The notes below the pieces were generated by a model that was not told where the DNA came from, searched no databases, and saw nothing but the letters and a program-made list of their open reading frames with translations. 64,000 nt of DNA. It comes from a bacterium. GTDB taxonomy: Bacteria; SZUA-182; DTGQ01. The first letter of the stretch is position 1. The number at the start of each line of letters is the position of its first letter. The position numbers were made by a program, and so were the translations under genes. The stretch spans positions 1 to 64,000 of the forward strand of contig JBFLZW010000049.1 in NCBI GenBank assembly GCA_040755755.1. The letters are read 5' to 3'. Positions 1,674 through 50,706 of this stretch are shown here, piece after piece.

Positions 1674-1729
1674 CCTGCTAACCGATAGCCGCACCTTCGT
1701 ATGGTGTGCGGCAGCTTAAGGAGAAGAGT

Positions 1730-2680: not shown

Positions 2681-2718
2681 TGACCTCTCGAGCAAAAATA
2701 GAAAGGAGATACGATATC

Positions 2719-4065: not shown

Positions 4066-4080
4066 AAAGAGGAGACAGGA

Positions 4081-4101
4081 GTCAGAAGTCAGAAGTCAGG
4101 A
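4081..4101. repeat. Short GTCAGAA tandem repeat between acsC and acsA
   Basis: The 151-base spacer between acsC and acsA opens with three near copies of the heptamer GTCAGAA. The rest of the spacer shows no convincing hairpin. It ends in AAGGAGAG before the acsA start. Simple repeats of this type occur often in intergenic DNA; no function is claimed. Confidence 0.5.
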
Positions 4102-4216
4102 GAAAAACTGATGACTTTTTTTGGCAGCTACCCCAGCAATTGTTACCCCAGGGTAAATTTTTAGGCAGGAAATACGAACTACTCCAGACCTTTTTCAGCG
4201 GCATAAGGAGAGTATA

Positions 4217-6160: not shown

Positions 6161-6261
6161 AGAGGAAATTGTTCGCCTCACCGTTTGACTGAGCGTGAAT
6201 GTACTACTGAAAGAACTGAACAAGCCATCTAATGATGAGAAACGAATAAAAGGGGTAAACG

Positions 6262-16911: not shown

Positions 16912-16940
16912 TTGACAGATTTGCTCAATACCTGTAATAT
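16912..16940 (+). promoter_or_regulatory. Sigma-70 promoter for gspCDEF
   Basis: A perfect TTGACA at 16912-16917 and TAATAT at 16935-16940 are separated by exactly 17 bases. The predicted transcript starts near 16947 and has a leader of about 140 bases that contains the tandem repeat at 16957-16996. The sequence resembles the ispB promoter (13616-13645) in its TTTG..CAA spacer and ATTGA downstream of the -10. Confidence 0.6.
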
Positions 16941-16956
16941 TGACCAGAAATCCAAC

Positions 16957-16996
16957 TAAGATCTCGATAATACCGTTAAGGTCTCGGTAGCACCGT
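16957..16996. repeat. Imperfect 20-bp tandem repeat in the gspC leader
   Basis: TAAGATCTCGATAATACCGT at 16957-16976 is followed at once by a second copy (16977-16996) that differs at four positions. It starts about ten bases after the predicted transcript start, where a repressor operator or RNA-binding site could sit. Confidence 0.5.
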
Positions 16997-17087
16997 ATGG
17001 GTATTCAACTATGTCATTCAACGCTTCTCTTCAGGGATTTTTGAGGGCTTCACCAAATAGGTATTCTCAAGGATAATATTTTTTTTT

Positions 17088-18017
17088 ATGATTAAAAGAT
17101 TATTCTGGTTTCTGGCTGTTTTATTTGTGACTGCCGATTCCTTTCTGGCCGCGGATCTTTTAATGTCCAAGATCAGTACCCAATGGGAGGATATGACCAG
17201 TCTTGAGGTTGCATTCGGCAATCAGCCCAAATCGCGGCCTGCCGGTATCAGGTATTCGGATTATATGGTAATTACCAAGCGGAACCTTTTCAAGACAGCC
17301 GACCTGAAAAAACAGGAAGAGGCAGCCAGATCACAGGAACCAAAACCGCAGGAAGTCAAATCTCTGGCTCCGTTGAAGTTGAAACTGCTGGGAACGATTG
17401 TCGGGAGCATCCCCGATCCCCGGGCTATCATTTTGGACCTCAACACCCAAAAGCAGGATATGTATCGAGAGGGTGAGATGGTTACCGAAGCCACCATCGT
17501 CAAGATATTCCGCAACAAGGTCGTGCTCAATCATGGGGGAAATGAGGAGATACTCCTGGCCTTTGAGTCTGAAGGTTCCCCTTCCGGTCGGGGGAATAAG
17601 CCACCTGACCATGCAAAGCAGGTTGAGCAGCCGGGTAGTGCTCCCCTGGCCCGCTTCGATTTAGGCCGTCTGGGCAGACGGGTATCCCAAAACCGGTGGG
17701 AGCTTGATCGGAGTGAGGTTGACCGGGCCGTGGAGAATGCCAGTCAACTCTTGACTCAGATCCGGATTGTCCCCCATTTTGACAAAGGGCAGCTCAATAC
17801 CCCTGACGGGTTCCAGATTGCCAATGTAAAGCAGGGAGGATTTTTTGATAAACTGGGCATTATGCCGGGAGACATTGTCAAAGAAGTCAACGGAGAGGCG
17901 GTTAACAGCCCGGAAAAAGCCTATGCTGCTTACCTGAAGTTTAAAAATGAACCCAATATCAAAGTTGTGATCGAAAGGCAGAATCAGCTCCAAACACTGA
18001 CCTATGATATTCCATAG
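17088..18017 (+). CDS. gspC: Type II secretion system inner-membrane coupling protein GspC (locus 1)
   Basis: GspC links the inner-membrane platform to the outer-membrane secretin. The 309-residue protein has one N-terminal membrane segment (about 5-24). A homology region follows (about 60-165) that starts YMVITKRNLFK and includes LKLKLLGTIVGSIPDPRAIIL. A charged linker leads to a C-terminal PDZ domain (about 225-308) with GFQIANVKQGGFFDKLGIMPGDIVKEVNG. The PDZ type is normal for true T2SS. The ATG follows a nine-T run, and the AAGGA site is 14 bases away, so translation may be weak. It is first in a gspC-D-E-F cassette. Confidence 0.9.
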   Translation: MIKRLFWFLAVLFVTADSFLAADLLMSKISTQWEDMTSLEVAFGNQPKSRPAGIRYSDYMVITKRNLFKTADLKKQEEAARSQEPKPQEVKSLAPLKLKLLGTIVGSIPDPRAIILDLNTQKQDMYREGEMVTEATIVKIFRNKVVLNHGGNEEILLAFESEGSPSGRGNKPPDHAKQVEQPGSAPLARFDLGRLGRRVSQNRWELDRSEVDRAVENASQLLTQIRIVPHFDKGQLNTPDGFQIANVKQGGFFDKLGIMPGDIVKEVNGEAVNSPEKAYAAYLKFKNEPNIKVVIERQNQLQTLTYDIP

Positions 18018-18056
18018 CATAGCAGTGGGCGATGCCTTGCAGGAGGAAGGTAATCG

Positions 18057-20246
18057 GTGATAACAATCAAAAAGGTCCCGAAGTGGTTCTTATGCGTGCT
18101 CTTTCTTGTAACTGTCTTGAGGGTGGCATACGGCTGGACGCAGGAGGTCCCTCCTTTACCGGGCGGGGCTGCGAAAAACTTTCTGGCGGATAAAGGTTCC
18201 TCGAAAAAAGTGTCTATGGATTTCGATAATGTCGATATCCGGCTGGTCATCAAGTTCATGAGTGAGCTTACAGGAAAGAATTTTATCCTGGATGACCGGG
18301 TAAAGGGAAAGGTAACGGTACTTTCCCCCACCCAAATACCGGTTAAGGATGCTTACCGGATTTTCGAATCGATCATGGAAGTCAATGGATATACTACGGT
18401 CACTTCGGGGAATGTTGTCAAAGTCGTTCCTGACAGCACCGCTGCCAGCAAGAACCTGGAAACCGTTACCGGAGAATCGTCCGATATCGGGCAGGAGAGC
18501 AGCGATGCCATGGTCACTCAGCTCATCCCCCTTGAGTATGCCGATGCCGAACGGGTCAAGGCCATACTGCAACCCCTGATTTCCCGGGAAAGCAAAATCC
18601 TGAGCTATCTTCCCACCAACACGCTGATCCTGACCGAACGGGCTTCGAACATCAATCGGCTCATGGCTATCCTGAAAGAGATTGATGTTGAAACGGAAGA
18701 TTCCATTATTTCAGTTATTCCCATTCAGCATGGGGATGTCGATAACCTCACCAAGCAGTTACAGACCCTGTTCGGAGAGCGGGCAAACACCTATCATAAA
18801 AGCCAAAAATCCCACTCAGGCCAGGGGAGTGCGCTGAAAATCCTCCCCGACAGCCGGACCGGTAACATCATTGTCCTGTCCGATCCGGAACAGCTTGAAG
18901 AGATCAAGGAATTACTCAAGCAGCTCGATGTTCCGGTTCCCAGGGATAAGGATGACATCCATGTCTATTTTCTCAAAAACTCCAAAGCCGACGATATGGC
19001 CAAGGTCCTGGCCCAGATCATGTCAAAAACCATGACTACCAAGGGAGCAAAGGACAGCAAGCCGGATACTCCGCTTACCGTCGTGGCTGACAAGGCCACC
19101 AATTCCCTGATTATTACCGCCTCTTCCGTGGATTACAGCGTTATTGAGCGGGTACTGCAAAAGCTTGACATCATGCGGCCTCAGGTACTGGTTGAGGCCC
19201 TGATCGCCGAAGTAAGCTACGACAAGTCACGGGAGCTCGGCGTGGAGTGGCGGGCCATGCGTGAGCCTTCAGGGCATGACAGCATACTTCCCCTGGCGGG
19301 AACGAGCTTTGGTAAAATCAATGAAGTAATAGCCAACCCCATGGCTCCGCCCGGAGGCATGTTTATCGGCCTGACCAAGGGGTACATTAATATGGGGGGA
19401 CTTTCCTTCCCCAATCTGGCGGCACTGGTTGCAGCTTACCAGACCGACAACGACGTGAATATCCTCTCCACGCCCCACATCCTGACCACCGACAACGAGG
19501 AGGCGGAAATCATTGTCGGCCAGGAAGTCCCTTTTGCCGGAGCCAGAGAGGTATTGAGCAACAACGCCAGCAATTCCATCTACTCGATTAATTATAAGAA
19601 TGTCGGCCTTACCCTGCGCATCACTCCCCACATTAATCAGGATGATTATGTCAAGCTGGAGATCTATCAGGAAATCAAGCAGATAGCTTCAACTACCATC
19701 AGTCAGGCCGGTCCAACTCCGACGACAACTATCCGCCAGGCCAAAACTTCCGTGGTAGTGAAAGATGGTCAAACCGTAGTCCTTGGCGGGTTGATCCAGG
19801 ATGATAAGTTCGATAATTCCCAGCGGGTTCCCTGTCTGGGGTCCATTCCTATCATTGGCCTGGCCTTTAAGTCCATGAACAAGCGAAACCAGAAAAGGAA
19901 CCTTCAGATATTTATCACCCCGCATATCATCAAGGAACCGGAAGATATCGATGTCTTTACGAGCGGGATGAAGAATCAACTGCGAAGTCAGGAAGGAAAA
20001 ACGGAGGTCAGCAGTCCGCAAGAGCCGCAGGAAACCAGAGGATCCAAGCAGCCCCAGCAAAAAACCATCAATCGAAAACAGCGGCACAAGAAGAAAGACA
20101 TCAAGCAGCACCAGACTATTCAAGATCAAGAGCAGCAGGAAAAGGCGAAAGATCAACAGCCGAAGGCAAAAGCCACAGACCCGGTGCCACAGCCGGAAAA
20201 TGCCGGCCAGGGGCAGCAGGAAAAAATTCAGGGAGCAGTCAAATAA
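18057..20246 (+). CDS. gspD: Type II secretion system secretin GspD (locus 1)
   Basis: This is the outer-membrane multimeric channel of the T2SS. The 729-residue protein begins with GTG after AGGAGGAAGG and has a signal peptide (about 8-26). The N0 domain (about 45-120) has MDFDNVDIRLVIKFMSELTGKNF. N1-N3 follow and contain LPTNTLILTERASNINRLMAILKEID and ILPDSRTGNIIVLSD. The secretin core has VLVEALIAEVSY, ILSTPHILTTDNEEAEI and VVLGGLIQDDK. The last 90 residues are an Arg/Lys/Gln-rich tail beyond the secretin core, possibly for pilotin or wall contact. It is not a lipoprotein, unlike the second GspD. Confidence 0.93.
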   Translation: MITIKKVPKWFLCVLFLVTVLRVAYGWTQEVPPLPGGAAKNFLADKGSSKKVSMDFDNVDIRLVIKFMSELTGKNFILDDRVKGKVTVLSPTQIPVKDAYRIFESIMEVNGYTTVTSGNVVKVVPDSTAASKNLETVTGESSDIGQESSDAMVTQLIPLEYADAERVKAILQPLISRESKILSYLPTNTLILTERASNINRLMAILKEIDVETEDSIISVIPIQHGDVDNLTKQLQTLFGERANTYHKSQKSHSGQGSALKILPDSRTGNIIVLSDPEQLEEIKELLKQLDVPVPRDKDDIHVYFLKNSKADDMAKVLAQIMSKTMTTKGAKDSKPDTPLTVVADKATNSLIITASSVDYSVIERVLQKLDIMRPQVLVEALIAEVSYDKSRELGVEWRAMREPSGHDSILPLAGTSFGKINEVIANPMAPPGGMFIGLTKGYINMGGLSFPNLAALVAAYQTDNDVNILSTPHILTTDNEEAEIIVGQEVPFAGAREVLSNNASNSIYSINYKNVGLTLRITPHINQDDYVKLEIYQEIKQIASTTISQAGPTPTTTIRQAKTSVVVKDGQTVVLGGLIQDDKFDNSQRVPCLGSIPIIGLAFKSMNKRNQKRNLQIFITPHIIKEPEDIDVFTSGMKNQLRSQEGKTEVSSPQEPQETRGSKQPQQKTINRKQRHKKKDIKQHQTIQDQEQQEKAKDQQPKAKATDPVPQPENAGQGQQEKIQGAVK

Positions 20247-20249
20247 CCA

Positions 20250-21959
20250 ATGGGCCTGAGCAAGAAGAGTCTGGGGACTATTCTCCTCGATCAGAACCTC
20301 CTCACTGAGGAGGCATTATCTGAAGCGCTGAATATCCAGAAGACCAAGGGAGGCAAGCTGGGTAAGATCCTTGTTCATCTGGGATATCTGAGCGAAGTCG
20401 AATTACTGCGGGCCATGAGCCTGAAATTTGGTATCCCTTTTCAAGAGGCGATCGACTTTCAATTGGATGCGGACCTGATTCAGAAAATCCCCTTTCATTT
20501 CTGCAAGCAGTACAAGCTGATCCCCTTTGCCAGGATAGACGGCCATATCAAGGTGGCTATTTCCGACCCCCTGCAGATACACCTGCTGGACGATGTGCGG
20601 CTTCTGAGCAGCCATCCGGTAGAGCCGGTTATCTGCACTGAAGATACGATCCTTGAAGCCATTCACGAGGTTTATCACCAATCTCCGGAATCCGCCGAGA
20701 AGATGGTCAAGGATCTTGATATGGAAGACTCCTCCGGCCTGATTGCCGATATCGGCGAGGAAGCCAGGGATATCCTGGACATGGCCAACGAGGCCCCCAT
20801 CATTAAACTGGTCAACCTCATTCTGCTCCAGGCGATCAAGGAGCGGGCCAGCGATATCCACGTGGAACCACTGGAGCGGGAGCTTCGCGTCCGCTACCGG
20901 ATTGACGGCATTCTCTACGATACCCTGACGCCACCCAAAAAATATCAAACAGCTATTATCTCCCGGATCAAGATCATGTCCAAAATGAACATTGCCGAAA
21001 AGCGGCTGCCGCAGGATGGCCGGATGAAGATCAAACTGGTTGACCGGGAAGTCGATATCCGGGTGTCCACCATTCCCGTGGCCTTTGGCGAGCGGGTGGT
21101 GATGCGGCTTCTGGATAAAAACTCCAACATCCTGACCCTCGAAGACCTTGGGTTTTCCGACAAAGACCTCATGGAATTCGGGTCCTTCATCAGCTATTCA
21201 CACGGGATTATTCTGGTTACCGGCCCGACGGGCAGCGGGAAAACTACCACCCTGTACGCAGTTCTCCGCAAGATCAATTTTACCGACAAGAACATCATCA
21301 CCGTTGAAGATCCGGTTGAATATCAGCTCGATGGCATCGGACAGATCCAGGTCATGCCGAAAATCAACCTGACCTTCTCCGCCGGGCTTCGCTCTATCCT
21401 GCGCCAGGACCCGGACGTTATCATGGTGGGCGAGATCCGGGACCTTGAAACCGCCGAGATTGCCATTCAGGCATCTCTGACCGGGCACCTGGTGTTCAGC
21501 ACCCTGCATACCAACGACTCTGCCGGGGCCATTACCCGGCTCCATGATATGGGCGTCGAGCCTTACCTTGTCGCCTCGTCCGTGATCGCTATTCTTGCCC
21601 AGCGTCTGGTTCGGCTGCTGTGCCCAAAGTGCAAAAAGGCAGCCTGCCCGGACCCGATCTCACTGGAAAAGATCGGTCTGACAATCAAAGACCTGCCGCA
21701 AGGGGTTGTCTACACCGCCCAGGGCTGCTCTCACTGCCTGCATACCGGATACCGGGGCAGGACCGGTATCTACGAGCTTTTGACTATCGACGATGAAATC
21801 CGAAGGGCCATTATGAACCGGGCCGAGGCCGGGGCAATTAAAAAGATCGGATTAAAGCGGGGCATGACCTCCCTGCGCCAGGACGGGGCCCGAAAAGTAG
21901 CCGCAGGAATAACCACCATCGAAGAGGTCCTTCGGGTGTCCCAGGAAGATATTTTTTAA
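20250..21959 (+). CDS. gspE: Type II secretion ATPase GspE (locus 1)
   Basis: This cytoplasmic AAA-like ATPase drives pseudopilus assembly. In 569 residues it has two N-terminal N1E/MshEN-type domains (about 1-150). A central motor has the Walker A GPTGSGKTTTLY near 325-336, the Asp box VEDPVEYQLDGI, the Walker B IMVGEIRDLETAEIA and the His box LHTNDS. The zinc-binding tetracysteine CPKC...CSHC is near 465-495. The zinc module and ARLHDMGVEPYLVASS region are standard for GspE/PilB. It lies three bases after gspD and 15 before gspF. PilB of type IV pili is the close alternative, but neighbours C and D favour T2SS. Confidence 0.93.
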   Translation: MGLSKKSLGTILLDQNLLTEEALSEALNIQKTKGGKLGKILVHLGYLSEVELLRAMSLKFGIPFQEAIDFQLDADLIQKIPFHFCKQYKLIPFARIDGHIKVAISDPLQIHLLDDVRLLSSHPVEPVICTEDTILEAIHEVYHQSPESAEKMVKDLDMEDSSGLIADIGEEARDILDMANEAPIIKLVNLILLQAIKERASDIHVEPLERELRVRYRIDGILYDTLTPPKKYQTAIISRIKIMSKMNIAEKRLPQDGRMKIKLVDREVDIRVSTIPVAFGERVVMRLLDKNSNILTLEDLGFSDKDLMEFGSFISYSHGIILVTGPTGSGKTTTLYAVLRKINFTDKNIITVEDPVEYQLDGIGQIQVMPKINLTFSAGLRSILRQDPDVIMVGEIRDLETAEIAIQASLTGHLVFSTLHTNDSAGAITRLHDMGVEPYLVASSVIAILAQRLVRLLCPKCKKAACPDPISLEKIGLTIKDLPQGVVYTAQGCSHCLHTGYRGRTGIYELLTIDDEIRRAIMNRAEAGAIKKIGLKRGMTSLRQDGARKVAAGITTIEEVLRVSQEDIF

Positions 21960-21974
21960 TAATGAAAAACTGCC

Positions 21975-23195
21975 ATGGCCATATTTGAATACCGCGCCCT
22001 CGATAGGCAGGGAAAATCCGTCAAGGGGTTGATCGATGCCGACAGCCCGCAGGATGCTCAGGCAAAATTACGGCGGGACAACATCTATCCCTTCAACCTC
22101 AAAATCACTACCGCAGCCCATAAGCGCCTGTCGAAAAACGAGCTTTTTACCCTGCTCCAGCCGAAAACCAAGACCAGGGAGATAGCCGTCATAACCCGGC
22201 AGTTAGCCACGCTCCTCAAGGCCGGCCTGCCCCTGATGCAGGCCCTGGCCGCGCTGGTTGATCAGATCGATGCCGAGCACACCAAAAAAATCTTCATCGA
22301 TATCCGTGAGAAGGTCAAGGGCGGCATGCCGCTGTCCAAAGCGATGTCAGAGCATCCCCAGGTTTTCTTTCGGCTGTATGTGCAGATGGTCCGGGCCGGA
22401 GAAGCCAGCGGATCTCTGGACCATGTTCTGGCCAGCCTGGCTAATTACCTGGAAAAAAAGATCCAGCAGAGAAATAAGATCCTCTCCACCCTGGCCTATC
22501 CGGCATTCATGCTCTTGATTGGAGTGGCTGTTCTGACTTTCCTGATGATCTATGTCATTCCGACCATCACGAATATCTTTGTGGAGATGAAGCAGAGCCT
22601 TCCCCTGCCTACGCTGGTCCTCATCCGGTCAAGTGAATTGCTGCAAAGGTTCTGGCTCCCGCTGCTGCCGGCTCTTGCCCTGCTCGTCCTGGCATTCAAT
22701 AAATACCGTCATACGGAGTCCGGCGGGCTTTTCGTTGACCGGACCTTACTCAAACTGCCAGTCTTCGGAGAGCTTATCCGCAAGATCGATACCGCCCGCT
22801 TTGCTCAAACCCTCGGCATCCTGGTCTGCAACGGGGTCCCTATCCTGGACTCATTAGCCATTGTCAAGGATGTCATCACCAACCGGCTGCTGGCCAACGC
22901 CATAGAAGAAGCACGCCACTGCCTCCAGCAGGGAGAGGACCTGGCAGTCCCCCTGAAAAAGGCCAAGGTATTTCCCCCGATTGTGACCCATATGATCGCC
23001 ATCGGAGAAAAAAGCGGACAATTGGAAGAGATGCTGGCCAATATTGCCGAAGGCTATGCCAATGAGGTTGACATGACCGTCAACAGCCTGACATCCATCC
23101 TCGAACCAGCTATTATCCTGCTGATGGGAGCCATCGTCGCCTTTGTGGTCCTGTCCATACTCCTGCCCATATTCGAGATGAACCAGATAGTTTAA
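21975..23195 (+). CDS. gspF: Type II secretion inner-membrane platform protein GspF (locus 1)
   Basis: This platform protein contacts GspE and GspL. It has 406 residues with the family layout: an N-terminal cytoplasmic FEYRALDRQGKSVKGLIDADS domain, then two T2SSF repeats. These carry ITRQLATLLKAGLPLMQAL near 75-93 and FAQTLGILVCNGVPILDSLAIV near 276-297, and membrane helices near 170, 220 and 380. It ends the gspCDEF cassette. Its TAA overlaps the stop of the opposite-strand hybrid kinase by two bases. No pseudopilin or gspL/M gene follows. Confidence 0.93.
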   Translation: MAIFEYRALDRQGKSVKGLIDADSPQDAQAKLRRDNIYPFNLKITTAAHKRLSKNELFTLLQPKTKTREIAVITRQLATLLKAGLPLMQALAALVDQIDAEHTKKIFIDIREKVKGGMPLSKAMSEHPQVFFRLYVQMVRAGEASGSLDHVLASLANYLEKKIQQRNKILSTLAYPAFMLLIGVAVLTFLMIYVIPTITNIFVEMKQSLPLPTLVLIRSSELLQRFWLPLLPALALLVLAFNKYRHTESGGLFVDRTLLKLPVFGELIRKIDTARFAQTLGILVCNGVPILDSLAIVKDVITNRLLANAIEEARHCLQQGEDLAVPLKKAKVFPPIVTHMIAIGEKSGQLEEMLANIAEGYANEVDMTVNSLTSILEPAIILLMGAIVAFVVLSILLPIFEMNQIV

Positions 23196-40224: not shown

Positions 40225-42366
40225 TTACCGTGCCGCTCCCATCGGCTGGGCAGCACCTGATGACGCCTGACCTTGATCAATCTTGCTTTTCAGCCCCTTG
40301 ACCCGCTCCTGGAATTGTCTGGTCAGTTCCCTTCCCTCTTCCTCATTTTCGATAACATGAGGAGTGATCAGGATAATCAACTCGGTTTTATGGATCTCGT
40401 CTTTGGTATGGGAAAAAAGATACCCAAGAACAGGAATATCACCCAGGAATGGGATGCCGGATCGTCCCTTGGATTTATGCTCCTTGATCAGACCACCGAT
40501 AACCAGGGTTTCCCCATCATGGACAACGACTGAAGTTTCGGCCTTTCGAGTACTGAAGATATATCTTTCATCGTTGGAACCTTCTTTAGGCCCTTGAACC
40601 AGTTGGCTTACCTCTTGCTTGAGCTTCAGGGAGACCAGACCCTTTTCGTTGATTTTAGGAGTAAAGTTCAGCTTTATACCAGCAGTTTTATAGTCATAGG
40701 TGATATTGGAGTGGTTAGAGGCAGAATCGTACGTTTCCCTCTTGATCGGATAATCCTGAGTAATTTCGATCGAAGCCTCCTGGTTATCAGAAGCAAGAAT
40801 GTGAGGGCTGGAAAGAACATTCAGTTTATCTTCGTTTACCTTGGAGTTGATCAGAGAGAGGAATCTGTCTTGCTTGTTAAGCATGTAATTGATCCCGGTG
40901 CCGTATGACATATTACCTTTATCATCTTGCTTGATCCCGCCAAGATCCTGGCCCAACCGGTAGGTAACTCCTCCGGTTGCAGAACCTGCCAGGGACCAGT
41001 CCAGGCCAAAATCTTTAACATCATCAATACTGATCTCGGCTACCAGGACTTCGATCAGGGCCTGCTTGGGCTGTATGTCCAGCTTTTTAATGGTCTCTTT
41101 GACCGCTTCCCAGTTCCGTGGAGAAGTAGTGATAATGAGAGCATTAATGTCTTCGGCAGCCACGATGGTTACATCACCCTGAACTTCACCCCCCTCGGCA
41201 GGTGGGTAGGAGGGAAATCCGAATGGAGGCTGCTGAACCGCCGCCGGCTGGTTAGGTCCTTTGGCCGCTCCCGGCGGAGTTTGCGGGGTAAGAGGCGGGG
41301 TCCAGGCATCCTTTTTGGTACCTCCTTTTTTATAGATGGAGCTTAAGGTGCTGGCCAGTTTTTTGGCATCTCCGTTTTCTACATAATACACAAAAACCTT
41401 CTCTTTGGGCTGATAAATCGGTTTATCAAGCTCCTGAACAAACTTCAAAAGCCTCTTCATATTCAACGCCGTATCGTTGATGATCAAAAGGTTCAGATCT
41501 TCGTGCTGGATAGGCCGGGGGGCGGACTTGGAAAGGAAGGGCTGCAATATATTGATCATATCCTTTACCGGGATATAGTCCAGAGGGATAATCTGAGTAA
41601 TAAAGCTTTCTTCCGGGGGAAGGGCCTCCCCGCCTTTTCCGGATAATACTTCGAGGGGATATTGGGAAGCCTCTTTGGCGTAGACCACCTTATAATGCCG
41701 ACCCGATGGAACGAGGGTTAAGCCGTTGACCTCCAGAGCGGATTGCAGAACCCGGAAAAATTCGCTCTTGGGAATCGACTTGGTGGTCCGCATATTGATC
41801 TGCCCCCCCTTGACCCCGGCTCCCATGATAAAATCAAGATTAATGGCCTTACTGATGGCAAAGAGAACCTCTTCGATAGGAGTATCGACAAAATTCAAAT
41901 CAACTTCATATTCTTCACTCCCGGGTTCCTCACCGGAAGAGATGACTTTTTGCCTGATGCCTTCCGGCATGCCATCGGGAGATGCTGCCGGTTTACTCTG
42001 CTGCTCTTCCTGCGGCCGGTAGGGCTTAAAAACAGAGTGGCTTTCCTCCTCTTTCTCCTTCTCTTTCCCCTGCTCTTTTCCTGTTCCCTTGCCTGATGAT
42101 TTGGCTTTTTTATCGACCCGTCTATTCCTGGTTTCCTTTTGGACGCCGCTCTTTTCCCCCTTTGGTTGTTCAGCCTGCTGCGGGTTCCTGCGTCCTCCCC
42201 CCTGCACATCTTCTGCCTGTGCCACTTTGACCTTATACGAACTCCCCCTCCTGGCGGGGAGCAGGGAATCTTTTGCAGTCACCGCGCGTTTCCCCCGACC
42301 GGCAGAACAGGAACAGAGGAGGAATGTCAAGAGCGAAACGAGAAAAAACCTTGGAAAACATTTCAT
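40225..42366 (-). CDS. gspD: Type II secretion system secretin GspD (locus 2), lipoprotein
   Basis: This outer-membrane secretin of the complete T2SS has 713 residues. Its signal peptide ends in lipobox LCSC (Cys20), so unlike the first GspD it should be lipidated. Residues about 25-150 are a Lys/Glu/Arg/Gln-rich low-complexity linker. The N0 domain with DLNFVDTPIEEVLFAISKAINLDFIMG follows. N1-N3 contain LNLLIINDTALNMKRLLKFVQELD and a Pro-rich insert, and the secretin core has ALIEVLVAEIS, VLSSPHILASDNQEASI and TLVIGGLIKEHKSKG. Lipidation may replace a pilotin for outer-membrane targeting. Confidence 0.92.
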   Translation of the reverse strand: MKCFPRFFLVSLLTFLLCSCSAGRGKRAVTAKDSLLPARRGSSYKVKVAQAEDVQGGGRRNPQQAEQPKGEKSGVQKETRNRRVDKKAKSSGKGTGKEQGKEKEKEEESHSVFKPYRPQEEQQSKPAASPDGMPEGIRQKVISSGEEPGSEEYEVDLNFVDTPIEEVLFAISKAINLDFIMGAGVKGGQINMRTTKSIPKSEFFRVLQSALEVNGLTLVPSGRHYKVVYAKEASQYPLEVLSGKGGEALPPEESFITQIIPLDYIPVKDMINILQPFLSKSAPRPIQHEDLNLLIINDTALNMKRLLKFVQELDKPIYQPKEKVFVYYVENGDAKKLASTLSSIYKKGGTKKDAWTPPLTPQTPPGAAKGPNQPAAVQQPPFGFPSYPPAEGGEVQGDVTIVAAEDINALIITTSPRNWEAVKETIKKLDIQPKQALIEVLVAEISIDDVKDFGLDWSLAGSATGGVTYRLGQDLGGIKQDDKGNMSYGTGINYMLNKQDRFLSLINSKVNEDKLNVLSSPHILASDNQEASIEITQDYPIKRETYDSASNHSNITYDYKTAGIKLNFTPKINEKGLVSLKLKQEVSQLVQGPKEGSNDERYIFSTRKAETSVVVHDGETLVIGGLIKEHKSKGRSGIPFLGDIPVLGYLFSHTKDEIHKTELIILITPHVIENEEEGRELTRQFQERVKGLKSKIDQGQASSGAAQPMGAAR

Positions 42367-42427
42367 ATATTAACCTCCGGATACTTAACAGATGATTCTG
42401 GAATTGACGTCATAGCAACATGATACC

Positions 42428-43480
42428 TCAAGATGGCCCACCACCCCGAAAGGGATTGAACATTGGCCCACCTTGTACCCCGGGAGGGACCTGAAATCCG
42501 GGTGGAACCTGAAATCCAGCCGGGGGCTGAAATCCGGCGGGGGGCTGAAATCCGGGAGGTGGTGCATAGATAGGCCGCTGTACGGGAAACTGCGGGAAAG
42601 CTGCTCCTGGGGGAATCCCTGGTTGGCCGGGAGGCACGAATCCTGGATAGCCAAATCCTGGCTGACCCGGCAATCCCTGAGGGGGCTGATAAGCGGGAAA
42701 ACCTGCTGGAGGAGATGGAGGCAGATAACCTGGCGGCACATCCGCAGGTCCCTCCGCCCCCGGTGGTGAGGTGCGCCCTTTCCGGTCTCCCTGATTCAAT
42801 AATTCCTGTCCGGGAGCCTGGGCATCCTTCGAGGATGTACGGAATTTCTCCCAGAGAAGTAATTCATATTCCTCTCCATTCTTACTGAGAATGACCCGGT
42901 CCGGCAGGATGTCGACGATTTTGGATTCGGAAATTTCGTCATCGACATGATAATGTTTGGCTTTGTCCTCAACTATTCTGCCAGGGATCGGAGGGAGAGG
43001 GACATCCCGGACCTCTCCATTCCCAAGCCTCATCTTTCGGGATCGCTTTTGAGGCTCTTCCCGAGACGACCCCTGCATAATGGCATATTTTTCTTTAACG
43101 TTATTATTTTTATCTTTAATGATAATTATTCCGTAAAGGTTTGGCTTCTTCATTCCCGGCTGATTGCGTTCAGCAGGATATTGCGGGATTTCCATCTTCG
43201 GCTGTTCGTTCTCCGGAGGAGGGGGAGGAGGGACCCATTCGGTCCGTTCGGGACGGAACAAATCCTTATCGGCAATGACATCGTACGTATAGAGAGCAGG
43301 CTTGACCGGCTCTTCGTCAGTGGGGACCGCCGCCTTGCCGGCAGTTTTCCGGGCCACAGCAGGCAGGGATTTCTTCCACTCTCCCTGTATGATCGGGAGC
43401 CAAATCCGGTAAACATTCAGACTCAATAAAGCTACGATGACAAAAAGTCCAAGATTAACCAAAATGATGCGCTTAAACAA
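42428..43480 (-). CDS. gspC: GspC-like coupling protein with Pro/Gly-rich tail (locus 2)
   Basis: The 350-residue protein starts at TTG after AGGAGAACC. It has one membrane helix (about 4-24) and then a GspC-like region with YDVIADKDLFRPERTEW near 70 and the paired-strand part NLYGIIIIKDK...VDDEISESKIVDILPDRVILSKNGEEYELLL (about 115-205). No PDZ or coiled-coil domain follows. Instead residues 230-350 are a Pro/Gly/Phe-rich tail with repeated GFQPPAGFQ and GFQVPPGFQ units. Place between gspM and gspD supports GspC; the tail is unusual for the family. Confidence 0.78.
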   Translation of the reverse strand: MFKRIILVNLGLFVIVALLSLNVYRIWLPIIQGEWKKSLPAVARKTAGKAAVPTDEEPVKPALYTYDVIADKDLFRPERTEWVPPPPPPENEQPKMEIPQYPAERNQPGMKKPNLYGIIIIKDKNNNVKEKYAIMQGSSREEPQKRSRKMRLGNGEVRDVPLPPIPGRIVEDKAKHYHVDDEISESKIVDILPDRVILSKNGEEYELLLWEKFRTSSKDAQAPGQELLNQGDRKGRTSPPGAEGPADVPPGYLPPSPPAGFPAYQPPQGLPGQPGFGYPGFVPPGQPGIPPGAAFPQFPVQRPIYAPPPGFQPPAGFQPPAGFQVPPGFQVPPGVQGGPMFNPFRGGGPS

Positions 43481-43505
43481 GAGGTTCTCCTGTAGTGAAA
43501 TCTTT

Positions 43506-44087
43506 TCAGGTGGTACCCTTACCGGTAGTGCCCTTGCTGTTTACAATAAAACCGGAAACATCGATTCTCGCTTCAACATCTTTTGCATCGCGTACTCGGT
43601 AAACCCGGATGTTGAGGTCGGAAATACTCAAAAATTTGGGGTATGATTCAATCTGGTAAAGTAATTCCTTGAGCTTGGTTATCGTGCACTGAGTAGTAAT
43701 CTGAACAGGGACTTCCAGAAGAATTCCCCGCTCTTTAGGGTTAATGATTCTCTGGCTGTTGATCACAAGCTCATGTTCACTGGCCATATCGTTCAATATG
43801 GTTTGCAGCTCTGCGGCAGCCACAGCCGGAGTATCGCCGGATAAAAGCCGCTGATCGAAGGTTTCCCGTTTGCTCTTTAAGTAATCCAGGCGGGCCTGAA
43901 CGATTTCCTTTTTTTCGGCAATCGAGGAAAAGCTTTTAATCTTGCGCCTTTTATTCTCAATCTCCTGCCTGACCTTCCTGGTATCATTCACAAGCGGATA
44001 AATAACACCGAAAGCAAAAAGTATGAACCCGACAATACTGCCGATAATCAGGGCTGGTTCTTTATTTTTCTCACTGATCTTTATCAC
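43506..44087 (-). CDS. gspM: Type II secretion protein GspM-like
   Basis: The 193-residue protein has one N-terminal membrane helix (about 13-31), a coiled-coil stretch (about 35-75) and a C-terminal ferredoxin-like domain. That domain carries VPVQITTQCTITKLKELLYQIESYPKFLSISDLNIRV, the GspM/PilO pattern. It pairs with GspL in the inner-membrane platform. The GTG start overlaps the gspL gene by 17 bases. Sequence conservation of this family is low; gene order is the main support. Confidence 0.82.
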   Translation of the reverse strand: MIKISEKNKEPALIIGSIVGFILFAFGVIYPLVNDTRKVRQEIENKRRKIKSFSSIAEKKEIVQARLDYLKSKRETFDQRLLSGDTPAVAAAELQTILNDMASEHELVINSQRIINPKERGILLEVPVQITTQCTITKLKELLYQIESYPKFLSISDLNIRVYRVRDAKDVEARIDVSGFIVNSKGTTGKGTT

Positions 44088-45834
44088 GGTTTCCCTTTCC
44101 GGCAGTTTTCCTGGAGCCCGGATGTTTCCCTTTACCGGAATCCTTATCTTCTTCCGGCTCCGTCAGAGGCTTTTTCCGCTCGATATCGGCTTTGATCTTA
44201 AAGCGCTCTTTTCCGGGGCCCATCTTGGTAATACTGGAGGCAAACTGCACATTTTCCAGCAGAGGGGATATCTCCAGCATGGAAATCAGATTGGATGGAG
44301 ACTCGGAGTAGCCATCGATTTCCACTTTTTCATTGGAAGCGGACAGATTGTCCAGCCAGGTATCCGCCGGAAGAATAGTGGTCAACTCCTTCAGAATTTC
44401 CATCTTGCTGATCTCGGTCTCGATAATATTCGAGATGGTCGAAAGTTCCTTATCGACGTCCTCAACCTCCTGAGAGATATTTTTCACGATCGTCACGTCA
44501 GGCTGAAGGGCTTTCAGGCGCTTGCTCAATTCCAGAGATATCAGCCCGTTTTCATACCGCATACCGAGGACCCAGGCCAGACTCAACACCACAATCAGGA
44601 CCATAAAGGTAGCCGTGACCACCAGGTGATTGACTTTCCTTTTGACTTTTTTCCCCTCAGCCAGGAAATTCAGCATGAGCGGCTGATCTTCCAGGCCGCG
44701 CAGAGCCAGCCCCGCGGCCATGGATAAACTGGAGGCGATTTTGCCCGGAATGCTCTTGGTGGTGATATTCCTTAACGGATTCAAAATTCGAACCTGCACG
44801 CCAGTTTGCGCCTCGATGTATTCGGGCAGGAAACCACTGTAAGCCTCGGTCCCGGTCAGAATCAATTCATCAAGGTTTTTTTCCTCTTCAAATCCGGAAA
44901 AAACATTCATGGCAATGTCAAGCTCCCGAATGATATCCTGCCCCAGGCTGCAAATATTCTCATTGATAGGCTCATAAACGGGAGCATTATCTTCTTCCAT
45001 CCCCTCTTGTACAACAGCCTGGAAAACCGAGGGGATACCTCCTGCTTCACCATCCTCCTCCTCTTCCCATGACGGCGGAGGGGTAAACGGCTCACTCTCT
45101 ATCCGGCTTTGGGCCGGATTGGGCTGGTCTGATCGGGCTCTCTCGAGTGGTCTGACCATTTCAGTAATGTAGGCGTCTTCCAGCCGGTTTTGTGTCCGGT
45201 TAAAGCTTCTGGTTGCCTTGATCTCTTTCCCGGCCAGAATAACCAGTTCGACCTTGCTCTCTCCAATATCCACAATAGCCGTTATCTTATTATCGCCAAG
45301 ATTGTTCTGGCTGATCAGCCAGCTCGTACCGGCAATGGCGGTAACGTCCATGACGACAGGCTTGGTTTCTTCAATATCCAGCAGGTTGAGAACCCGCTGC
45401 AGATCGTCCTTTTTTACGATTCCCAAAAGAACCTTTACCAGCTCGCCCTCTTTGCTCAAGACCTGATAATCATAGGCGATCCCCTGGACTGCAAACGGAA
45501 TATGCCGCTCCACCTCATATTCCAGCATCTCCTGGAACTGCTTTTCTTCAACCTTGGGCAGAACGATCTCTTTCAGGGTCACTTTTTCCTTGGGGATGCC
45601 GATAACTATCTGCTCCTGCTTGATTTTCCTTTCCCTGATAAAATTCTGCAGATCAACGGACAGCGGATCCACATCCCCTTCCGCTTCTCCCTTGCCTGAT
45701 CCTGGCGGCAGAGGAGGATACTTCCTGATAAAATAATCGACCAGGACAATCCCCTTCAATGTTCGCCCAAGGTGAACAATCCGCAAGATGCGGTCCCGAA
45801 AATCAATACCTAAGCTCTGTTGTAAATATAGCAA
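44071..45834 (-). CDS. gspL: Type II secretion protein GspL
   Basis: GspL couples the ATPase GspE to the membrane platform. The 587-residue protein has a cytoplasmic actin-like PilM/GspL fold (about 1-390) with GIDFRDRILRIVHLG, EIVLPKVEEKQFQEMLEYEVERHIPF and IVDIGESKVELVI. A membrane helix (about 405-425) and a periplasmic ferredoxin-like domain with coiled coil (about 430-560) follow. An acidic low-complexity insert (about 235-285) and a basic C-terminal tail (KGKHPGSRKTAGKG) are extra. It is read from a TTG start with GGAG upstream. The whole corresponds to a PilM-PilN fusion. Confidence 0.88.
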   Translation of the reverse strand: MLYLQQSLGIDFRDRILRIVHLGRTLKGIVLVDYFIRKYPPLPPGSGKGEAEGDVDPLSVDLQNFIRERKIKQEQIVIGIPKEKVTLKEIVLPKVEEKQFQEMLEYEVERHIPFAVQGIAYDYQVLSKEGELVKVLLGIVKKDDLQRVLNLLDIEETKPVVMDVTAIAGTSWLISQNNLGDNKITAIVDIGESKVELVILAGKEIKATRSFNRTQNRLEDAYITEMVRPLERARSDQPNPAQSRIESEPFTPPPSWEEEEDGEAGGIPSVFQAVVQEGMEEDNAPVYEPINENICSLGQDIIRELDIAMNVFSGFEEEKNLDELILTGTEAYSGFLPEYIEAQTGVQVRILNPLRNITTKSIPGKIASSLSMAAGLALRGLEDQPLMLNFLAEGKKVKRKVNHLVVTATFMVLIVVLSLAWVLGMRYENGLISLELSKRLKALQPDVTIVKNISQEVEDVDKELSTISNIIETEISKMEILKELTTILPADTWLDNLSASNEKVEIDGYSESPSNLISMLEISPLLENVQFASSITKMGPGKERFKIKADIERKKPLTEPEEDKDSGKGKHPGSRKTAGKGNRDKDQ

Positions 45835-45898
45835 CGTAGCTCCATCCTTAGCTGTTGATCATTCTCCCGATACAGGCGGCTGATCGGAACCATCGGCG

Positions 45899-47005
45899 TC
45901 ATCCTGGTTGGTTCGGATCTTCGCTTTGGTTCGCTTCTTCGCTGTATTCGGGGATATAATTATCGTTCCAGTACAGGGGCTCCCAATAGGTCCGGGTGGG
46001 TGAATTGTCCCGCACTTGAAAAGAAGCCTTGATTGTGCTCTGCACAGGGGAACCTGTGATGACTGCTGTTGAGACAACCTGATAGTATCCGAGGTAAAAA
46101 CTTTTGTTAGGCGGGGGATCAGTTTCACGATCCTCCTTTTGTTTCTCTGGTGATATGTTTCCCTCCCAGCCGAGGTCATAAGCTACCTGAATGATCGCAG
46201 AATCACTGATATTTTGCAAGAAACCAGTCTGAGGTTGAGGATTGATGCCCGCGTTAGCCAGATCCACATTTACCTTAAAATACCGTTTAAACTTCTTTAC
46301 AATTTTTTCTTTTCTTTTGACTTCTTCCTCACTGTCTCCCTTTTCAGCCCGAAGGCCACGAATCAACCTCAGCTCATCCTCGCTATCAAAAGGGGCATCT
46401 TTACATGTATAACCCTTATCATGCCATTTATACCAGTCATCTTCCGCCCCAATGTCAGGCAATCCTCCACTTTGTGCTGATCCACCGGCAATATGGTCAT
46501 TATCCACCCAATCCAGGATGGACTGGCAAATTTCGCTCACCTCAGATTCAGAATCTATCTCACAATACTTCTCCAGGAATTTTTTAATCATCTCTTCGCT
46601 TCTCGCACGATTGGCAGGATCAGCCAGCTTATTTAACGGCAATTTATCACTGGCGACCTCGAATTTATACCTGTACTGCCCGTCCCCTAACTTCTCATCT
46701 CTCCATGAGGGTGTTGCTTTAACCCCGCCATCTTCCCCCAAACCGAAAACCCAATCGGCGGCATTATTTTGATAATGCGGTTTCTGTTGGGTAGCGAGAG
46801 CTGCCAGTTCATACCGGCCAATCTCGATACCGGCCCTGGCCAGGTAATAGGCCTGAACTTCATCACGAAAATTTTTGGTTACCTCCACTTCCGTTCTCAT
46901 GGAATGGGCAAACTCCAGAGCAACAAAACTCAGGAGCATCATGACCCATAAGACCATCATCAGAGCGACTCCCTGTTCATTCCTCCGGATCTTTCCCTTT
47001 TTCAT
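45899..47005 (-). CDS. gspK: Minor pseudopilin GspK
   Basis: GspK is the large minor pseudopilin at the pseudopilus tip. In 368 residues it has the short basic leader MKKGKIRRNEQG and prepilin cleavage before VALMMVLWVMMLLSFVAL. The +5 position is Met rather than Glu, as expected for GspK only. The middle alpha domain has LADPANRARSEEMIKKFLEKYCEID and CQSILDWVDNDHIAGG, the typical T2SSK region. It starts three bases after the gspJ stop. The gap to gspL is 64 bases. Confidence 0.9.
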   Translation of the reverse strand: MKKGKIRRNEQGVALMMVLWVMMLLSFVALEFAHSMRTEVEVTKNFRDEVQAYYLARAGIEIGRYELAALATQQKPHYQNNAADWVFGLGEDGGVKATPSWRDEKLGDGQYRYKFEVASDKLPLNKLADPANRARSEEMIKKFLEKYCEIDSESEVSEICQSILDWVDNDHIAGGSAQSGGLPDIGAEDDWYKWHDKGYTCKDAPFDSEDELRLIRGLRAEKGDSEEEVKRKEKIVKKFKRYFKVNVDLANAGINPQPQTGFLQNISDSAIIQVAYDLGWEGNISPEKQKEDRETDPPPNKSFYLGYYQVVSTAVITGSPVQSTIKASFQVRDNSPTRTYWEPLYWNDNYIPEYSEEANQSEDPNQPG

Positions 47006-47008
47006 CCG

Positions 47009-47794
47009 TCATCCCTGCCCTTGTCCTGGGATTACGTTTTCCCTCCGCTCTACAACCGGAATAGGGATATCAAAGCTGGTGACTATATCCTTTTCCTCTT
47101 CCCGAGCCTCTCCTTCCGGCTTTCGGTGAATGGTAACCCGAACCCTTTGCGGCAGATTGAGAAGGTACTTTTCTCCACTCTCCACTAATTCCAGCGGATT
47201 CCAGTCCTCATACCATTCCGGCTCGGCATCGATTTCCACCACCTCACCAGCAATTTTCTTGATACCGTAATATTGAAAGGTAATATCAATCACATCCGGA
47301 TACAGAGAATAACGGTGTACCTGCGGTGCCGGGGTTTCCTCATCCAGGGGCGGTGGATACTGGGATAACCAGGGGCTTTCTTCCATATTCATGCCCGGCT
47401 TTTCCTCATCCTCACCAAGATAATACGAGACATACCGCAAAGTTCCTTTCTTCAACTGTCGGTCAATGCCGGAAGCTGTGGTAATCAAGGTCAGCTTATG
47501 AGCTTCTCCAAAAAACACTACTGTCCATCTCTGCCGGTTCCGGTCGAACGTTGCTTCTCCCGCTGCATCGGTCTCAAACTTGGGCGGTCTGAGGATTCCC
47601 ATGCAGGATTTGATATCCTGTATCAGGATATCGAACACACACCGCATCCGCTGCTGCTCATCCAGTCTTTTCTCACCGGCCTCCCATGACCGGGTGCTTA
47701 ACCGGAATCCTCCCATGATCACGCCCATGATCATGGCCAGGATGGTCAGAGAGATTATCACCTCGATAAGGGTAAATCCCTGTTCCTGTTTCAT
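47009..47794 (-). CDS. gspJ: Minor pseudopilin GspJ
   Basis: This 261-residue minor pseudopilin has leader MKQEQG, cleavage before FTLIEVIISLTILAMI and Glu at +5. After the helix come RSWEAGEKRLDEQQRMRCVFDILIQDI and a beta-rich globular domain with WTVVFFGEAHKLTLITTASG and VRYVSYYL-type strands, as in GspJ. It forms the tip complex with GspI and GspK. A prepilin peptidase gene (gspO/pilD) is needed to process it but is not in this window. Confidence 0.9.
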   Translation of the reverse strand: MKQEQGFTLIEVIISLTILAMIMGVIMGGFRLSTRSWEAGEKRLDEQQRMRCVFDILIQDIKSCMGILRPPKFETDAAGEATFDRNRQRWTVVFFGEAHKLTLITTASGIDRQLKKGTLRYVSYYLGEDEEKPGMNMEESPWLSQYPPPLDEETPAPQVHRYSLYPDVIDITFQYYGIKKIAGEVVEIDAEPEWYEDWNPLELVESGEKYLLNLPQRVRVTIHRKPEGEAREEEKDIVTSFDIPIPVVERRENVIPGQGQG

Positions 47795-47828
47795 TCCTCA
47801 GAGTTGTCTCGCATACGGGGAAAAAATA

Positions 47829-48287
47829 TCAAGAAGGCTTTTTATAAAACATTTTCACGGTGACCAGTTCCACACTTTTTTCGTTCTGTCCGCTTTCCCA
47901 GGTCACCCGAACCGTGATTTTTCGAAGCTGGAAATCTTTCTCATCTATCGAGGCATTATTTTTTGCCCACTCCTCTTCAAGCTCATCGATTATATAATCT
48001 TCATCGGTTATTTCCCATCGATACCCCTGGAACAGATCTTCTCCCTCTTTGGTTCCGAATTCTCCCTGCCGCTCTACCTTTTCTTCAAAATCTTCCACAT
48101 ACAGATAGCCCAGAATTTCATCCATTTTCGCTCTGGCACCCATCACCGCCCTGGTATAATCCGCCGACACCCTGGCCGAGTGCAGCGATCCGGAAAACAA
48201 CTGGAAAACCGTAACCAGACCTATGGCCAGAATAGCTACCGCAACCATCACTTCGAGCAGGGTAAAGCCTGCCGGATCCTTACTCAT
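47829..48287 (-). CDS. gspI: Minor pseudopilin GspI
   Basis: The start at 48287 gives 152 residues with leader MSKDPAG and the cleaved N-terminus FTLLEVMVAVAILAIGLVTV, Glu at +5. A longer frame to 48335 would put 16 basic residues inside gspH and is rejected. The globular part has YTRAVMGARAKMDEILG and a C-terminal strand pair ITVRVTWESGQNEKSVELVTV, typical of GspI. It overlaps gspH by eight bases, indicating coupling. Confidence 0.9.
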   Translation of the reverse strand: MSKDPAGFTLLEVMVAVAILAIGLVTVFQLFSGSLHSARVSADYTRAVMGARAKMDEILGYLYVEDFEEKVERQGEFGTKEGEDLFQGYRWEITDEDYIIDELEEEWAKNNASIDEKDFQLRKITVRVTWESGQNEKSVELVTVKMFYKKPS

Positions 48288-48879
48288 TTTCAGTCGCTCT
48301 ATCGACCTTGACCCTGCCCGTAATCGGGTCCACATCGATCTGATAAGCCAGATTAAGCTCTTTCATGGCCAGGGTAATTTTCCCTCCGCTCGATTCACCT
48401 TTGGGATAGAAGATAATCTCACCCACCATGCCGGACTCATCCTGCATTGGTTCCTCCTCACCCTGATCCTGGCAGGAGATGCTTACATCCTTGGTTTTCA
48501 GAACCTCGTATAAATCTATCTTGACTTCCCTATCCTTGATCCCCTGTTCACCAAGATCAGCCTTACCCTGGGCGGCGTTCGGATCTTCAACAGTCTGATC
48601 CCCGTCATCTCCACCTGTCTCTCGGATTACGCTCAGATAGACATAGGTATGATCATCCGGAAAAGTCACGGTATATTCTTTCTTCCGGGAAATCGCCATC
48701 TGCCTTGCATAGCGCAAAACTGCGGACAGCCTGCGGGCGGCTGAGCGCAGTTGCATCTTTTCCAAAGACTTTCCGATCTTTGGCGCAGCCAGGGCCATAG
48801 CTGCACCCATGATCACGATGACGATCACCAGCTCGATGAGGGTAAAACCTTTTTCCCCGGCAAGGATACCATCCTTCAT
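48280..48879 (-). CDS. gspH: Minor pseudopilin GspH
   Basis: The 199-residue protein has leader MKDGILAGEKG and N-terminus FTLIELVIVIVIMGAAMALA with Glu at +5. LRSAARRLSAVLRYARQMAISRKKEYTVTF follows, the GspH/FimT pattern. The C-terminal strands include GEIIFYPKGESSGGKITLAM. It overlaps gspG by four bases (ATGA). It presumably joins the major pseudopilin stalk to the tip complex. Confidence 0.9.
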   Translation of the reverse strand: MKDGILAGEKGFTLIELVIVIVIMGAAMALAAPKIGKSLEKMQLRSAARRLSAVLRYARQMAISRKKEYTVTFPDDHTYVYLSVIRETGGDDGDQTVEDPNAAQGKADLGEQGIKDREVKIDLYEVLKTKDVSISCQDQGEEEPMQDESGMVGEIIFYPKGESSGGKITLAMKELNLAYQIDVDPITGRVKVDRATENE

Positions 48880-49346
48880 TCTATTCCCGGTTCCCGGACT
48901 GGACCACCGCCGCCAGCAGTCTCTTCCCCTTCTTCCTCGCCGGTTTCATCACAAATGTCATCCTCGGTGCCTTGTTGCCCGTCTGGCCCCGGTGAGCATG
49001 GCTGCTCGTTCTCGGCCATGTAATAATAGTCGTTTCCCCAGGGATCTTTAGGTAATTTTTTTAAGTAGGGGCCATCCCATCGCCTGCCTAATTGCTCTGT
49101 ATCTTCTACCAAAGCTTGGAGGTCTGGAGGATAATGTCCGGTATCCAGTCGATACGAATCGAGCGCAGTTTTAAACAGGGAAATCTGAGCACGCGCTGCC
49201 TTATCTCGGGCTTTTTCCACTTTACCAAACATCCTCGGCGCAACCAGGGCAGCCAGAAGGCCGATGATGATCATGACAATGAGAAGTTCGATCAAAGTAA
49301 AACCTGCATGTGTTGCTGTACATAAGATTTTTAAATGTTTTTTCAT
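48876..49346 (-). CDS. gspG: Major pseudopilin GspG
   Basis: GspG is the stalk subunit of the pseudopilus. From the ATG at 49346 it has 156 residues with a 15-residue leader ending HAG, cleavage before FTLIELLIVMIIIGLLAALV and Glu at +5. KARDKAARAQISLFKTALDSYRLDTGHYP and KLPKDPWGNDYYY are canonical. The calcium-loop region GPDGQQGTEDDICD is followed by a 25-residue Glu/Gly-rich tail, and Cys residues flank the loop. In-frame GTG codons upstream of 49346 lack spacing for a ribosome site. Confidence 0.93.
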   Translation of the reverse strand: MKKHLKILCTATHAGFTLIELLIVMIIIGLLAALVAPRMFGKVEKARDKAARAQISLFKTALDSYRLDTGHYPPDLQALVEDTEQLGRRWDGPYLKKLPKDPWGNDYYYMAENEQPCSPGPDGQQGTEDDICDETGEEEGEETAGGGGPVREPGIE

Positions 49347-49428
49347 CTTCACAAACACCCCCTGCTGAATACAGCTAACAATAATAATTTAGTTTTTTTC
49401 TCCTGACTCCTGAGCTTCACAACCGGCT

Positions 49429-50658: not shown

Positions 50659-50706
50659 GAAAAATCTTTATCCTCATCCGAATCTCAGTATCGAAGGTAA
50701 ATTGGG

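What the first reader, a model, noticed from the sequence alone, without database searches (positions are those of the whole stretch)
16912..23195. Stand-alone gspC-D-E-F cassette without pseudopilins, 17 kb from a complete T2SS
Locus 1 encodes only the coupling protein, secretin, ATPase and platform protein, under its own promoter. Locus 2 (40225-52437, opposite strand) encodes all of gspE-F-G-H-I-J-K-L-M-C-D. The locus 1 GspC has a PDZ domain while the locus 2 GspC has a Pro/Gly tail, and only the locus 2 GspD is a lipoprotein. The cassette may swap into the locus 2 machine to change substrate choice, or may drive a different fibre whose pilins are elsewhere. Both ideas are inference.
Basis: partly seen in the sequence, partly recalled or inferred. 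Interest (0 to 1): 0.65.

Follow-up and report, generated by a model that had tools for sequence, protein, structure and literature searches.

The report
Pilin-less partial type II secretion cassette
This uncultured bacterium carries, besides a complete protein-export machine, a second set of just four of its parts (coupler, gate, motor, platform) that has been kept intact across its whole order without the pilin-like piston parts, so it probably borrows the pistons of the complete machine to export different cargo.

Summary
Window 17088-23195 encodes intact GspC (HR+PDZ), GspD, GspE and GspF and nothing else of a type II secretion system (T2SS); a complete Xps-order T2SS (E-F-G-H-I-J-K-L-M-C-D) lies 17 kb away. 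Whole-genome searches find no second set of T2SS pseudopilins: the only GspG above its family cut-off is in locus 2. The same pilin-less C-D-E-F cassette is intact in all four nearest relatives (same genus, family and order), under purifying selection equal to locus 2, and behind a conserved TTGACA-N17-TAATAT/TATATT promoter. D, E and F trees agree: locus 1 is one clade inside the classical gspCDEFGHIJKLM-type T2SSs, whereas locus 2 is the class's own T2SS. So the cassette looks foreign in origin, ancient and selected, not degraded or mis-assembled. Best explanation: an alternative motor-and-gate module that uses pseudopilins and GspL/M encoded elsewhere, most likely locus 2's. That coupling is inferred, not shown. 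Nearest known case: the orphan GspC-D pair XphA/XqhA of Pseudomonas; I found no stand-alone C-D-E-F in the literature held. In sister orders, stand-alone PDZ-GspC genes beside large secreted-protein genes fit a cargo-selection role. New variant of a known kind; functional proof is missing.

The parts
16912..16940 (+). sigma-70-type promoter TTGACA-N17-TAATAT upstream of gspC1
   Evidence: Consensus scan; the same core (TTGACA-N17-TAATAT or TATATT) lies upstream of gspC in G001-G004, in a short conserved block within an otherwise poorly alignable intergenic region in G001
17088..18017 (+). gspC1: inner-membrane coupler with HR domain (about 94-156) and C-terminal PDZ (about 236-305)
   Evidence: NF041515 184.9 bits, T2SSC and PDZ HMMs, profile match to solved GspC-HR 3oss_C and OutC/PulC PDZ, structure model matching EpsC PDZ and 3oss_C
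18057..20246 (+). gspD1: secretin, no lipobox
   Evidence: TIGR02517 541.5 bits; profile matches solved T2SS secretins 5wln, 6hcg and others over N0 to pore
20250..21959 (+). gspE1: assembly ATPase with MshEN-type N-terminal domain
   Evidence: TIGR02533 710 bits, c-di-GMP-motif NF053729 56 bits; Walker A, Asp box, Walker B and tetra-Cys intact
21975..23195 (+). gspF1: inner-membrane platform protein; last gene of the cassette, converging with a histidine kinase gene (23192-26002, -)
   Evidence: TIGR02120 465 bits; ORFs, kinase domains
49429..52437 (-). locus 2 gspE (50707-52437) and gspF (49429-50658): the native counterparts of E1 and F1
   Evidence: TIGR02533 695 bits, TIGR02120 452 bits; trees
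45899..49358 (-). locus 2 pseudopilins gspG-H-I-J-K: the presumed donors of pseudopilus subunits
   Evidence: GspG 125 bits, the only one above cut-off in the genome; N_methyl matches; GspK-like
43506..45834 (-). locus 2 gspL (44071-45834, PilM-like) and gspM (43506-44087, XpsM family)
   Evidence: NF040576 98 bits (cut-off 60); TIGR01175 96 bits, below its cut-off of 133
42428..43480 (-). locus 2 gspC2: HR-like region, no PDZ, Pro/Gly-rich disordered tail
   Evidence: weak NF041515 and T2SSC matches only; model
40225..42366 (-). locus 2 gspD2: secretin with lipobox-like N-terminus
   Evidence: TIGR02517 412 bits; N-terminus read

Best explanation
Locus 1 is the C-D-E-F part of a classical (gspCDEFGHIJKLM-type) T2SS that entered the ancestor of this order and has been kept since as an alternative motor-and-gate module. 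C1 and D1 form their own PDZ-bearing gate, and E1 and F1 form their own assembly motor. The module must borrow pseudopilins G-H-I-J-K and assembly proteins L/M encoded elsewhere, most likely from the resident Xps-type T2SS of locus 2, whose own GspC lacks a PDZ. Making the four proteins from their own promoter would give a hybrid secreton with a different periplasmic substrate-selection domain and a different outer-membrane pore. Shown: gene content, absence of a paired pseudopilin set, conservation, purifying selection, promoter footprint and phylogenetic placement. Inferred: horizontal entry, use of locus 2's G-M, and a changed cargo range.
For: The only GspG above cut-off in G000-G004 is in the locus 2 type cluster. 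The cassette is intact and pilin-less in five genomes of the order. dN/dS 0.04-0.14 in locus 1 against 0.035-0.17 in locus 2. Conserved promoter. D, E and F trees place locus 1 as one clade inside classical T2SSs and locus 2 as the class's native system. All five genomes that have locus 1 also have locus 2. Precedent for a hybrid: XphA/XqhA with Xcp in P. aeruginosa (PMC6567927). A PDZ on GspC is needed for only a subset of substrates in Vibrio (PMC12369372).
Against: No test of physical interaction was possible. The N-terminal region of E1 that would dock on GspL shows no significant convergence towards E2 (identity 0.38 to E2 against 0.31 to classical; bootstrap interval includes zero; the nearest classical sequence is as similar). 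GspL2 is PilM-like rather than classical, so docking is not assured. All five genomes also carry other pilus-type systems, so co-occurrence with locus 2 is not specific.
Confidence: 0.5

Rival explanations
1. Locus 1 drives a different fibre: it works with the pilins and PilM/N/O-type proteins of another system in the genome (the C42 or C16 system, the minor-pilin clusters, or type IV pilins).
For: The genome has several other pilin clusters and single pilin genes.
Against: C42 and C16 have their own E, F and secretin and C22 its own PilB/PilC; C1 to F1 are T2SS-type by curated cut-offs and E1, F1, D1 fall below the PilB, PilC and PilQ cut-offs. PDZ-bearing GspC is not a pilus part (PMC12369372).
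Confidence: 0.17
2. Locus 1 is a reduced secreton that works with one pilin or none, as chlamydial and some mitochondrial T2SSs work with few parts.
For: Chlamydial T2SSs apparently lack minor pilins and GspL/M (PMC6668835). A lone GspG-like pilin gene exists on C84.
Against: The C84 pilin scores 36 bits against a cut-off of 89 and was not shown to be conserved; those reduced systems are usually described with a GspG (my knowledge).
Confidence: 0.12
3. Locus 1 has its own pseudopilin and L/M genes that were missed: too divergent, or in assembly gaps.
For: All genomes are draft MAGs (G000 97.6% complete); no genome-wide GspL/M search was made.
Against: Absent in five independent assemblies; the order's locus 1 is nested among classical systems whose GspG scores well above cut-off, so a partner GspG should be detectable.
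Confidence: 0.1
4. Locus 1 is a decaying remnant of a once complete operon, without function.
For: The classical operon order C-D-E-F-G-... makes loss of the 3' part a simple origin.
Against: Intact reading frames in five genomes, dN/dS 0.04-0.14, catalytic motifs and promoter conserved.
Confidence: 0.03

Closest known systems
XphA/XqhA (PaQa) of Pseudomonas aeruginosa, an orphan GspC-D pair
   Same: A partial second set of T2SS genes outside a complete cluster, separately regulated, described as part of a functional hybrid with the Xcp machine (PMC6567927).
   Different: Only C and D; here also the ATPase and platform protein, of a different T2SS lineage from the resident machine, and conserved across an order. 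The primary paper was not held.
Xanthomonas Xps and Xcs
   Same: One genome with two T2SSs: xps (E, F, G to M, C, D; the order of locus 2, with GspC lacking a PDZ fold) and the later-acquired, classical-order xcs (PMC2585010, PMC11981180).
   Different: xcs is a complete operon xcsC to xcsN; locus 1 stops after F.
Classical gspCDEFGHIJKLM T2SS of Syntrophales, Nitrospinota and others
   Same: Locus 1 C, D, E and F are most closely related to these.
   Different: No G to M downstream in any of the five genomes.
Reduced T2SS of Chlamydiae and mitochondrial T2SS of some protists
   Same: Few T2SS parts, including D, E and F.
   Different: Chlamydial systems apparently lack minor pilins and GspL/M (PMC6668835); both kinds are described with a GspG (my knowledge), which locus 1 lacks; they are not a second set beside a full T2SS.

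Membership tests
Type II secretion system (complete) | GspC, GspD, GspE and GspF of T2SS type | tested here: met
   All four above NCBIfam equivalog cut-offs
Type II secretion system (complete) | Major and minor pseudopilins G to K in the locus or phylogenetically paired elsewhere | tested here: not met
   None at locus 1 in five genomes; the only GspG above cut-off belongs to locus 2
Type II secretion system (complete) | GspL and GspM assembly proteins | tested here: inconclusive
   None in the locus; no genome-wide GspL/M HMM search was made
[quoted passage not shown]
   Needs experiment
Orphan GspCD hybrid module (XphA/XqhA kind) | Partial T2SS set beside a complete T2SS, with its own expression unit | tested here: met
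Orphan GspCD hybrid module (XphA/XqhA kind) | Contains only C and D | tested here: not met
   Also E and F
Orphan GspCD hybrid module (XphA/XqhA kind) | Functions with the other parts of the resident machine | not testable with these tools
   Needs experiment
Type IV pilus | PilB/PilC/PilQ-type ATPase, platform and secretin above their cut-offs | tested here: not met
   E1 648 bits against the PilB cut-off of 676; D1 268 against the PilQ cut-off of 284; F1 358 against the PilC cut-off of 700

The most novel reading that the evidence does not exclude
In this candidate lineage the T2SS is modular. One PDZ-less core machine is fitted with interchangeable PDZ-bearing parts: a complete motor-and-gate module (C-D-E-F) in the focal order, and single cargo-linked GspC-PDZ adaptors, each encoded beside its own large secreted protein, in sister orders.
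Probability: 0.35. Interest if true: 0.75.

Novelty: new variant of a known kind. Interest (0 to 1): 0.52.

Why it matters
How T2SSs choose cargo is still unsettled. A naturally separate, long-conserved C-D-E-F module beside a complete machine of another type would show that motor, platform and gate can be exchanged as a unit while pseudopilins and GspL/M are shared. It gives a direct test of which parts set substrate choice. The cargo-linked PDZ-GspC genes in sister orders would add a genetic link between individual PDZ-GspCs and individual cargoes.

Tried and rejected
Early ORF calls suggested pilin-less C-D-E-F in two distant genomes (G071, G028); the GspG HMM search showed GspG directly after F in both, so those carry G and the claim was dropped. 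An apparent similarity of E1's N-terminal domain to E2 was tested by bootstrap and was not significant. The C84 lone pilin as locus 1's missing GspG was rejected as too weak (36 bits against a cut-off of 89). A regulon around the promoter's flanking block was looked for: one site each in G000, G001 and G002 and none in G003 or G004, so no regulon was found. A search with a profile of the stand-alone GspC-PDZ proteins over 193 genomes returned ordinary GspCs outside the class. Single-sequence folding of GspC2 gave a low-confidence model (mean pLDDT 51) and is used only for the disordered tail.

Full report
What is there. Locus 1 consists of gspC (17088-18017), gspD (18057-20246), gspE (20250-21959) and gspF (21975-23195) on the + strand, with gaps of 3-39 nt between genes. 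All four pass T2SS-specific curated cut-offs. GspC1 has a secretin-binding HR domain and a PDZ domain, shown by HMM, by match to solved GspC-HR 3oss_C and to the OutC/PulC PDZ domains, and by a predicted model whose two domains match EpsC PDZ and 3oss_C. GspD1 matches solved T2SS secretins from N0 to the pore. GspE1 keeps Walker A, Asp box, Walker B and the tetra-cysteine motif. Upstream of gspC is unrelated metabolism (ApbE, polyprenyl synthetase); downstream, a histidine kinase gene converges on gspF with a 4-nt overlap.

Locus 2 is a complete T2SS in the order E-F-G-H-I-J-K-L-M-C-D. Its GspM is of the XpsM family. The order is that of the Xanthomonas xps cluster (PMC11981180, PMC2585010). 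GspC2 lacks a PDZ and ends in a Pro/Gly-rich tail.

No partner set. Six-frame searches of the assembled genome (97.6% complete) with N_methyl and GspG models find pilins at locus 2, at two other systems with their own E, F and secretin (C42 with PilMNO-type genes, C16 MSHA-like), at minor-pilin clusters (C52, C67) and as single genes. Only the locus 2 GspG exceeds its cut-off (125 bits; the next is 65). A lone GspL/M pair was not searched genome-wide.

Conservation. The same four genes, in the same order and without pilins, are intact in the congener G001, in two other genera of the family (G002, G003) and in another family of the order (G004) (identity of E1 92/83/79/67%). In each of them the HMM search finds a single GspG above cut-off, in the locus 2 type cluster. 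Neighbouring genes differ between genomes, except that a DUF502 gene follows gspF in G002, G003 and G004. dN/dS between G000 and G001 is 0.04-0.14 in locus 1 and 0.035-0.17 in locus 2 (dS is 1 or more, so the ratios are rough). The core promoter TTGACA-N17-TAATAT/TATATT lies upstream of gspC in all five genomes; between G000 and G001 it sits in a short conserved block within an otherwise poorly alignable intergenic region (the G003 and G004 sites were read by eye from the printed upstream sequences).

Origin. Maximum-likelihood trees of GspE, GspF and GspD each put locus 1 of the five genomes in one clade (SH-aLRT 99-100), inside a larger clade of classical T2SSs (Nitrospinota J063, Syntrophales and others). 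Locus 2 groups with the T2SS of other orders of the class: G005, G006 and G008 for E, G005-G008 for F, G005 alone for D. In G005-G008 the locus 2 type E gene lies away from F-G-H. Locus 2 is therefore most simply the native machine, and locus 1 an acquisition in the ancestor of the order, retained as C-D-E-F. Whether a full operon came in and lost G-M, or only four genes came in, cannot be told.

Function. E and F have no known role without pilins and GspL/M (established knowledge), so the cassette must draw on parts encoded elsewhere. Locus 2 is the only set whose GspG passes the T2SS cut-off. Hybrid secretons have a precedent in XphA/XqhA with Xcp (PMC6567927). In Vibrio the PDZ of GspC is fully needed for only one known substrate (PMC12369372), so a PDZ-bearing alternative gate on a PDZ-less machine would plausibly change cargo. 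I tested whether the N-terminal docking region of E1 has become E2-like and found no significant signal. Sharing remains an inference.

A related pattern in sister orders. G005-G007 lack the cassette, and their native GspC lacks a PDZ where it was read (G005, G006). They carry stand-alone GspC-like HR+PDZ genes: five closely related and one more distant. Four of the five lie 18-46 nt upstream of a co-directional gene for a large protein with M6 peptidase, MopE metal-binding, beta-helix or carboxypeptidase-regulatory domains. The distant one (G005 C128) lies 264 nt downstream of a lipoprotein-like gene with beta-helix and MopE. A profile of the five finds no other member matching through its C-terminal tail in 193 genomes. 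This suggests PDZ-GspC adaptors tied to particular cargoes and supports reading locus 1 as a cargo-range module, but it too is untested.

Limits. All related genomes are draft assemblies. No expression or interaction data exist. Trees used a quick search with SH-aLRT only. The literature library is partial: the primary XphA/XqhA paper was not held, and I found no report of a stand-alone C-D-E-F there.

Noticed in passing
G005 L114:9873-10817(-), L115:8061-8900(-), L116:1875-2687(-); G006 L117:9954-10934(+); G007 L119:3994-5064(+); G005 L194:8192-9145(-): Stand-alone GspC-like HR+PDZ genes in sister orders; four of the first five lie 18-46 nt upstream of genes for large proteins with M6 peptidase, MopE, beta-helix or related domains, as if each adaptor had its own cargo.
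   Followed up: partly
G002 L051:6739-7398(-), G003 L064:6136-6810(+), G004 L053:12205-12861(+): A DUF502 membrane-protein gene follows gspF1 in three of the five genomes, but not in G000 or G001.
   Followed up: no
L169, L170, L171, L172; L113: In sister orders the native T2SS gene gspE lies away from gspF-G-H, and in G005 gspF is also separate from gspG-D.
   Followed up: partly
window 28714-30831 (+) and 30919-33483 (-): Two exported proteins between the two T2SS loci: a beta-propeller protein (PF09826) and a DUF302 plus Big_2 protein, both with signal-peptide or lipoprotein-like N-termini; possible but untested cargo.
   Followed up: no
G000 C42:11119-21909 and C16:28000-38500: Two further E-F-pilin-PilMNO-secretin systems in the same genome; with T4aP on C22 and Tad on C50 the genome holds at least six type-IV-filament loci.
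   Followed up: partly
G000 C18:74083 and C33:78092: Two pilin frames of equal length (162 codons) and equal score on two different contigs, possibly a recent duplication or an assembly duplicate.
   Followed up: no
window 888-8469: CODH/ACS gene cluster (pterin-binding protein, CdhD, Prismane/CODH, ACS/CODH beta), suggesting a Wood-Ljungdahl metabolism.
   Followed up: no
window 20250-20450 and 52240-52437: Both GspE1 and GspE2 carry a MshEN-related c-di-GMP-binding motif above its curated cut-off, so both motors may respond to c-di-GMP.
   Followed up: no
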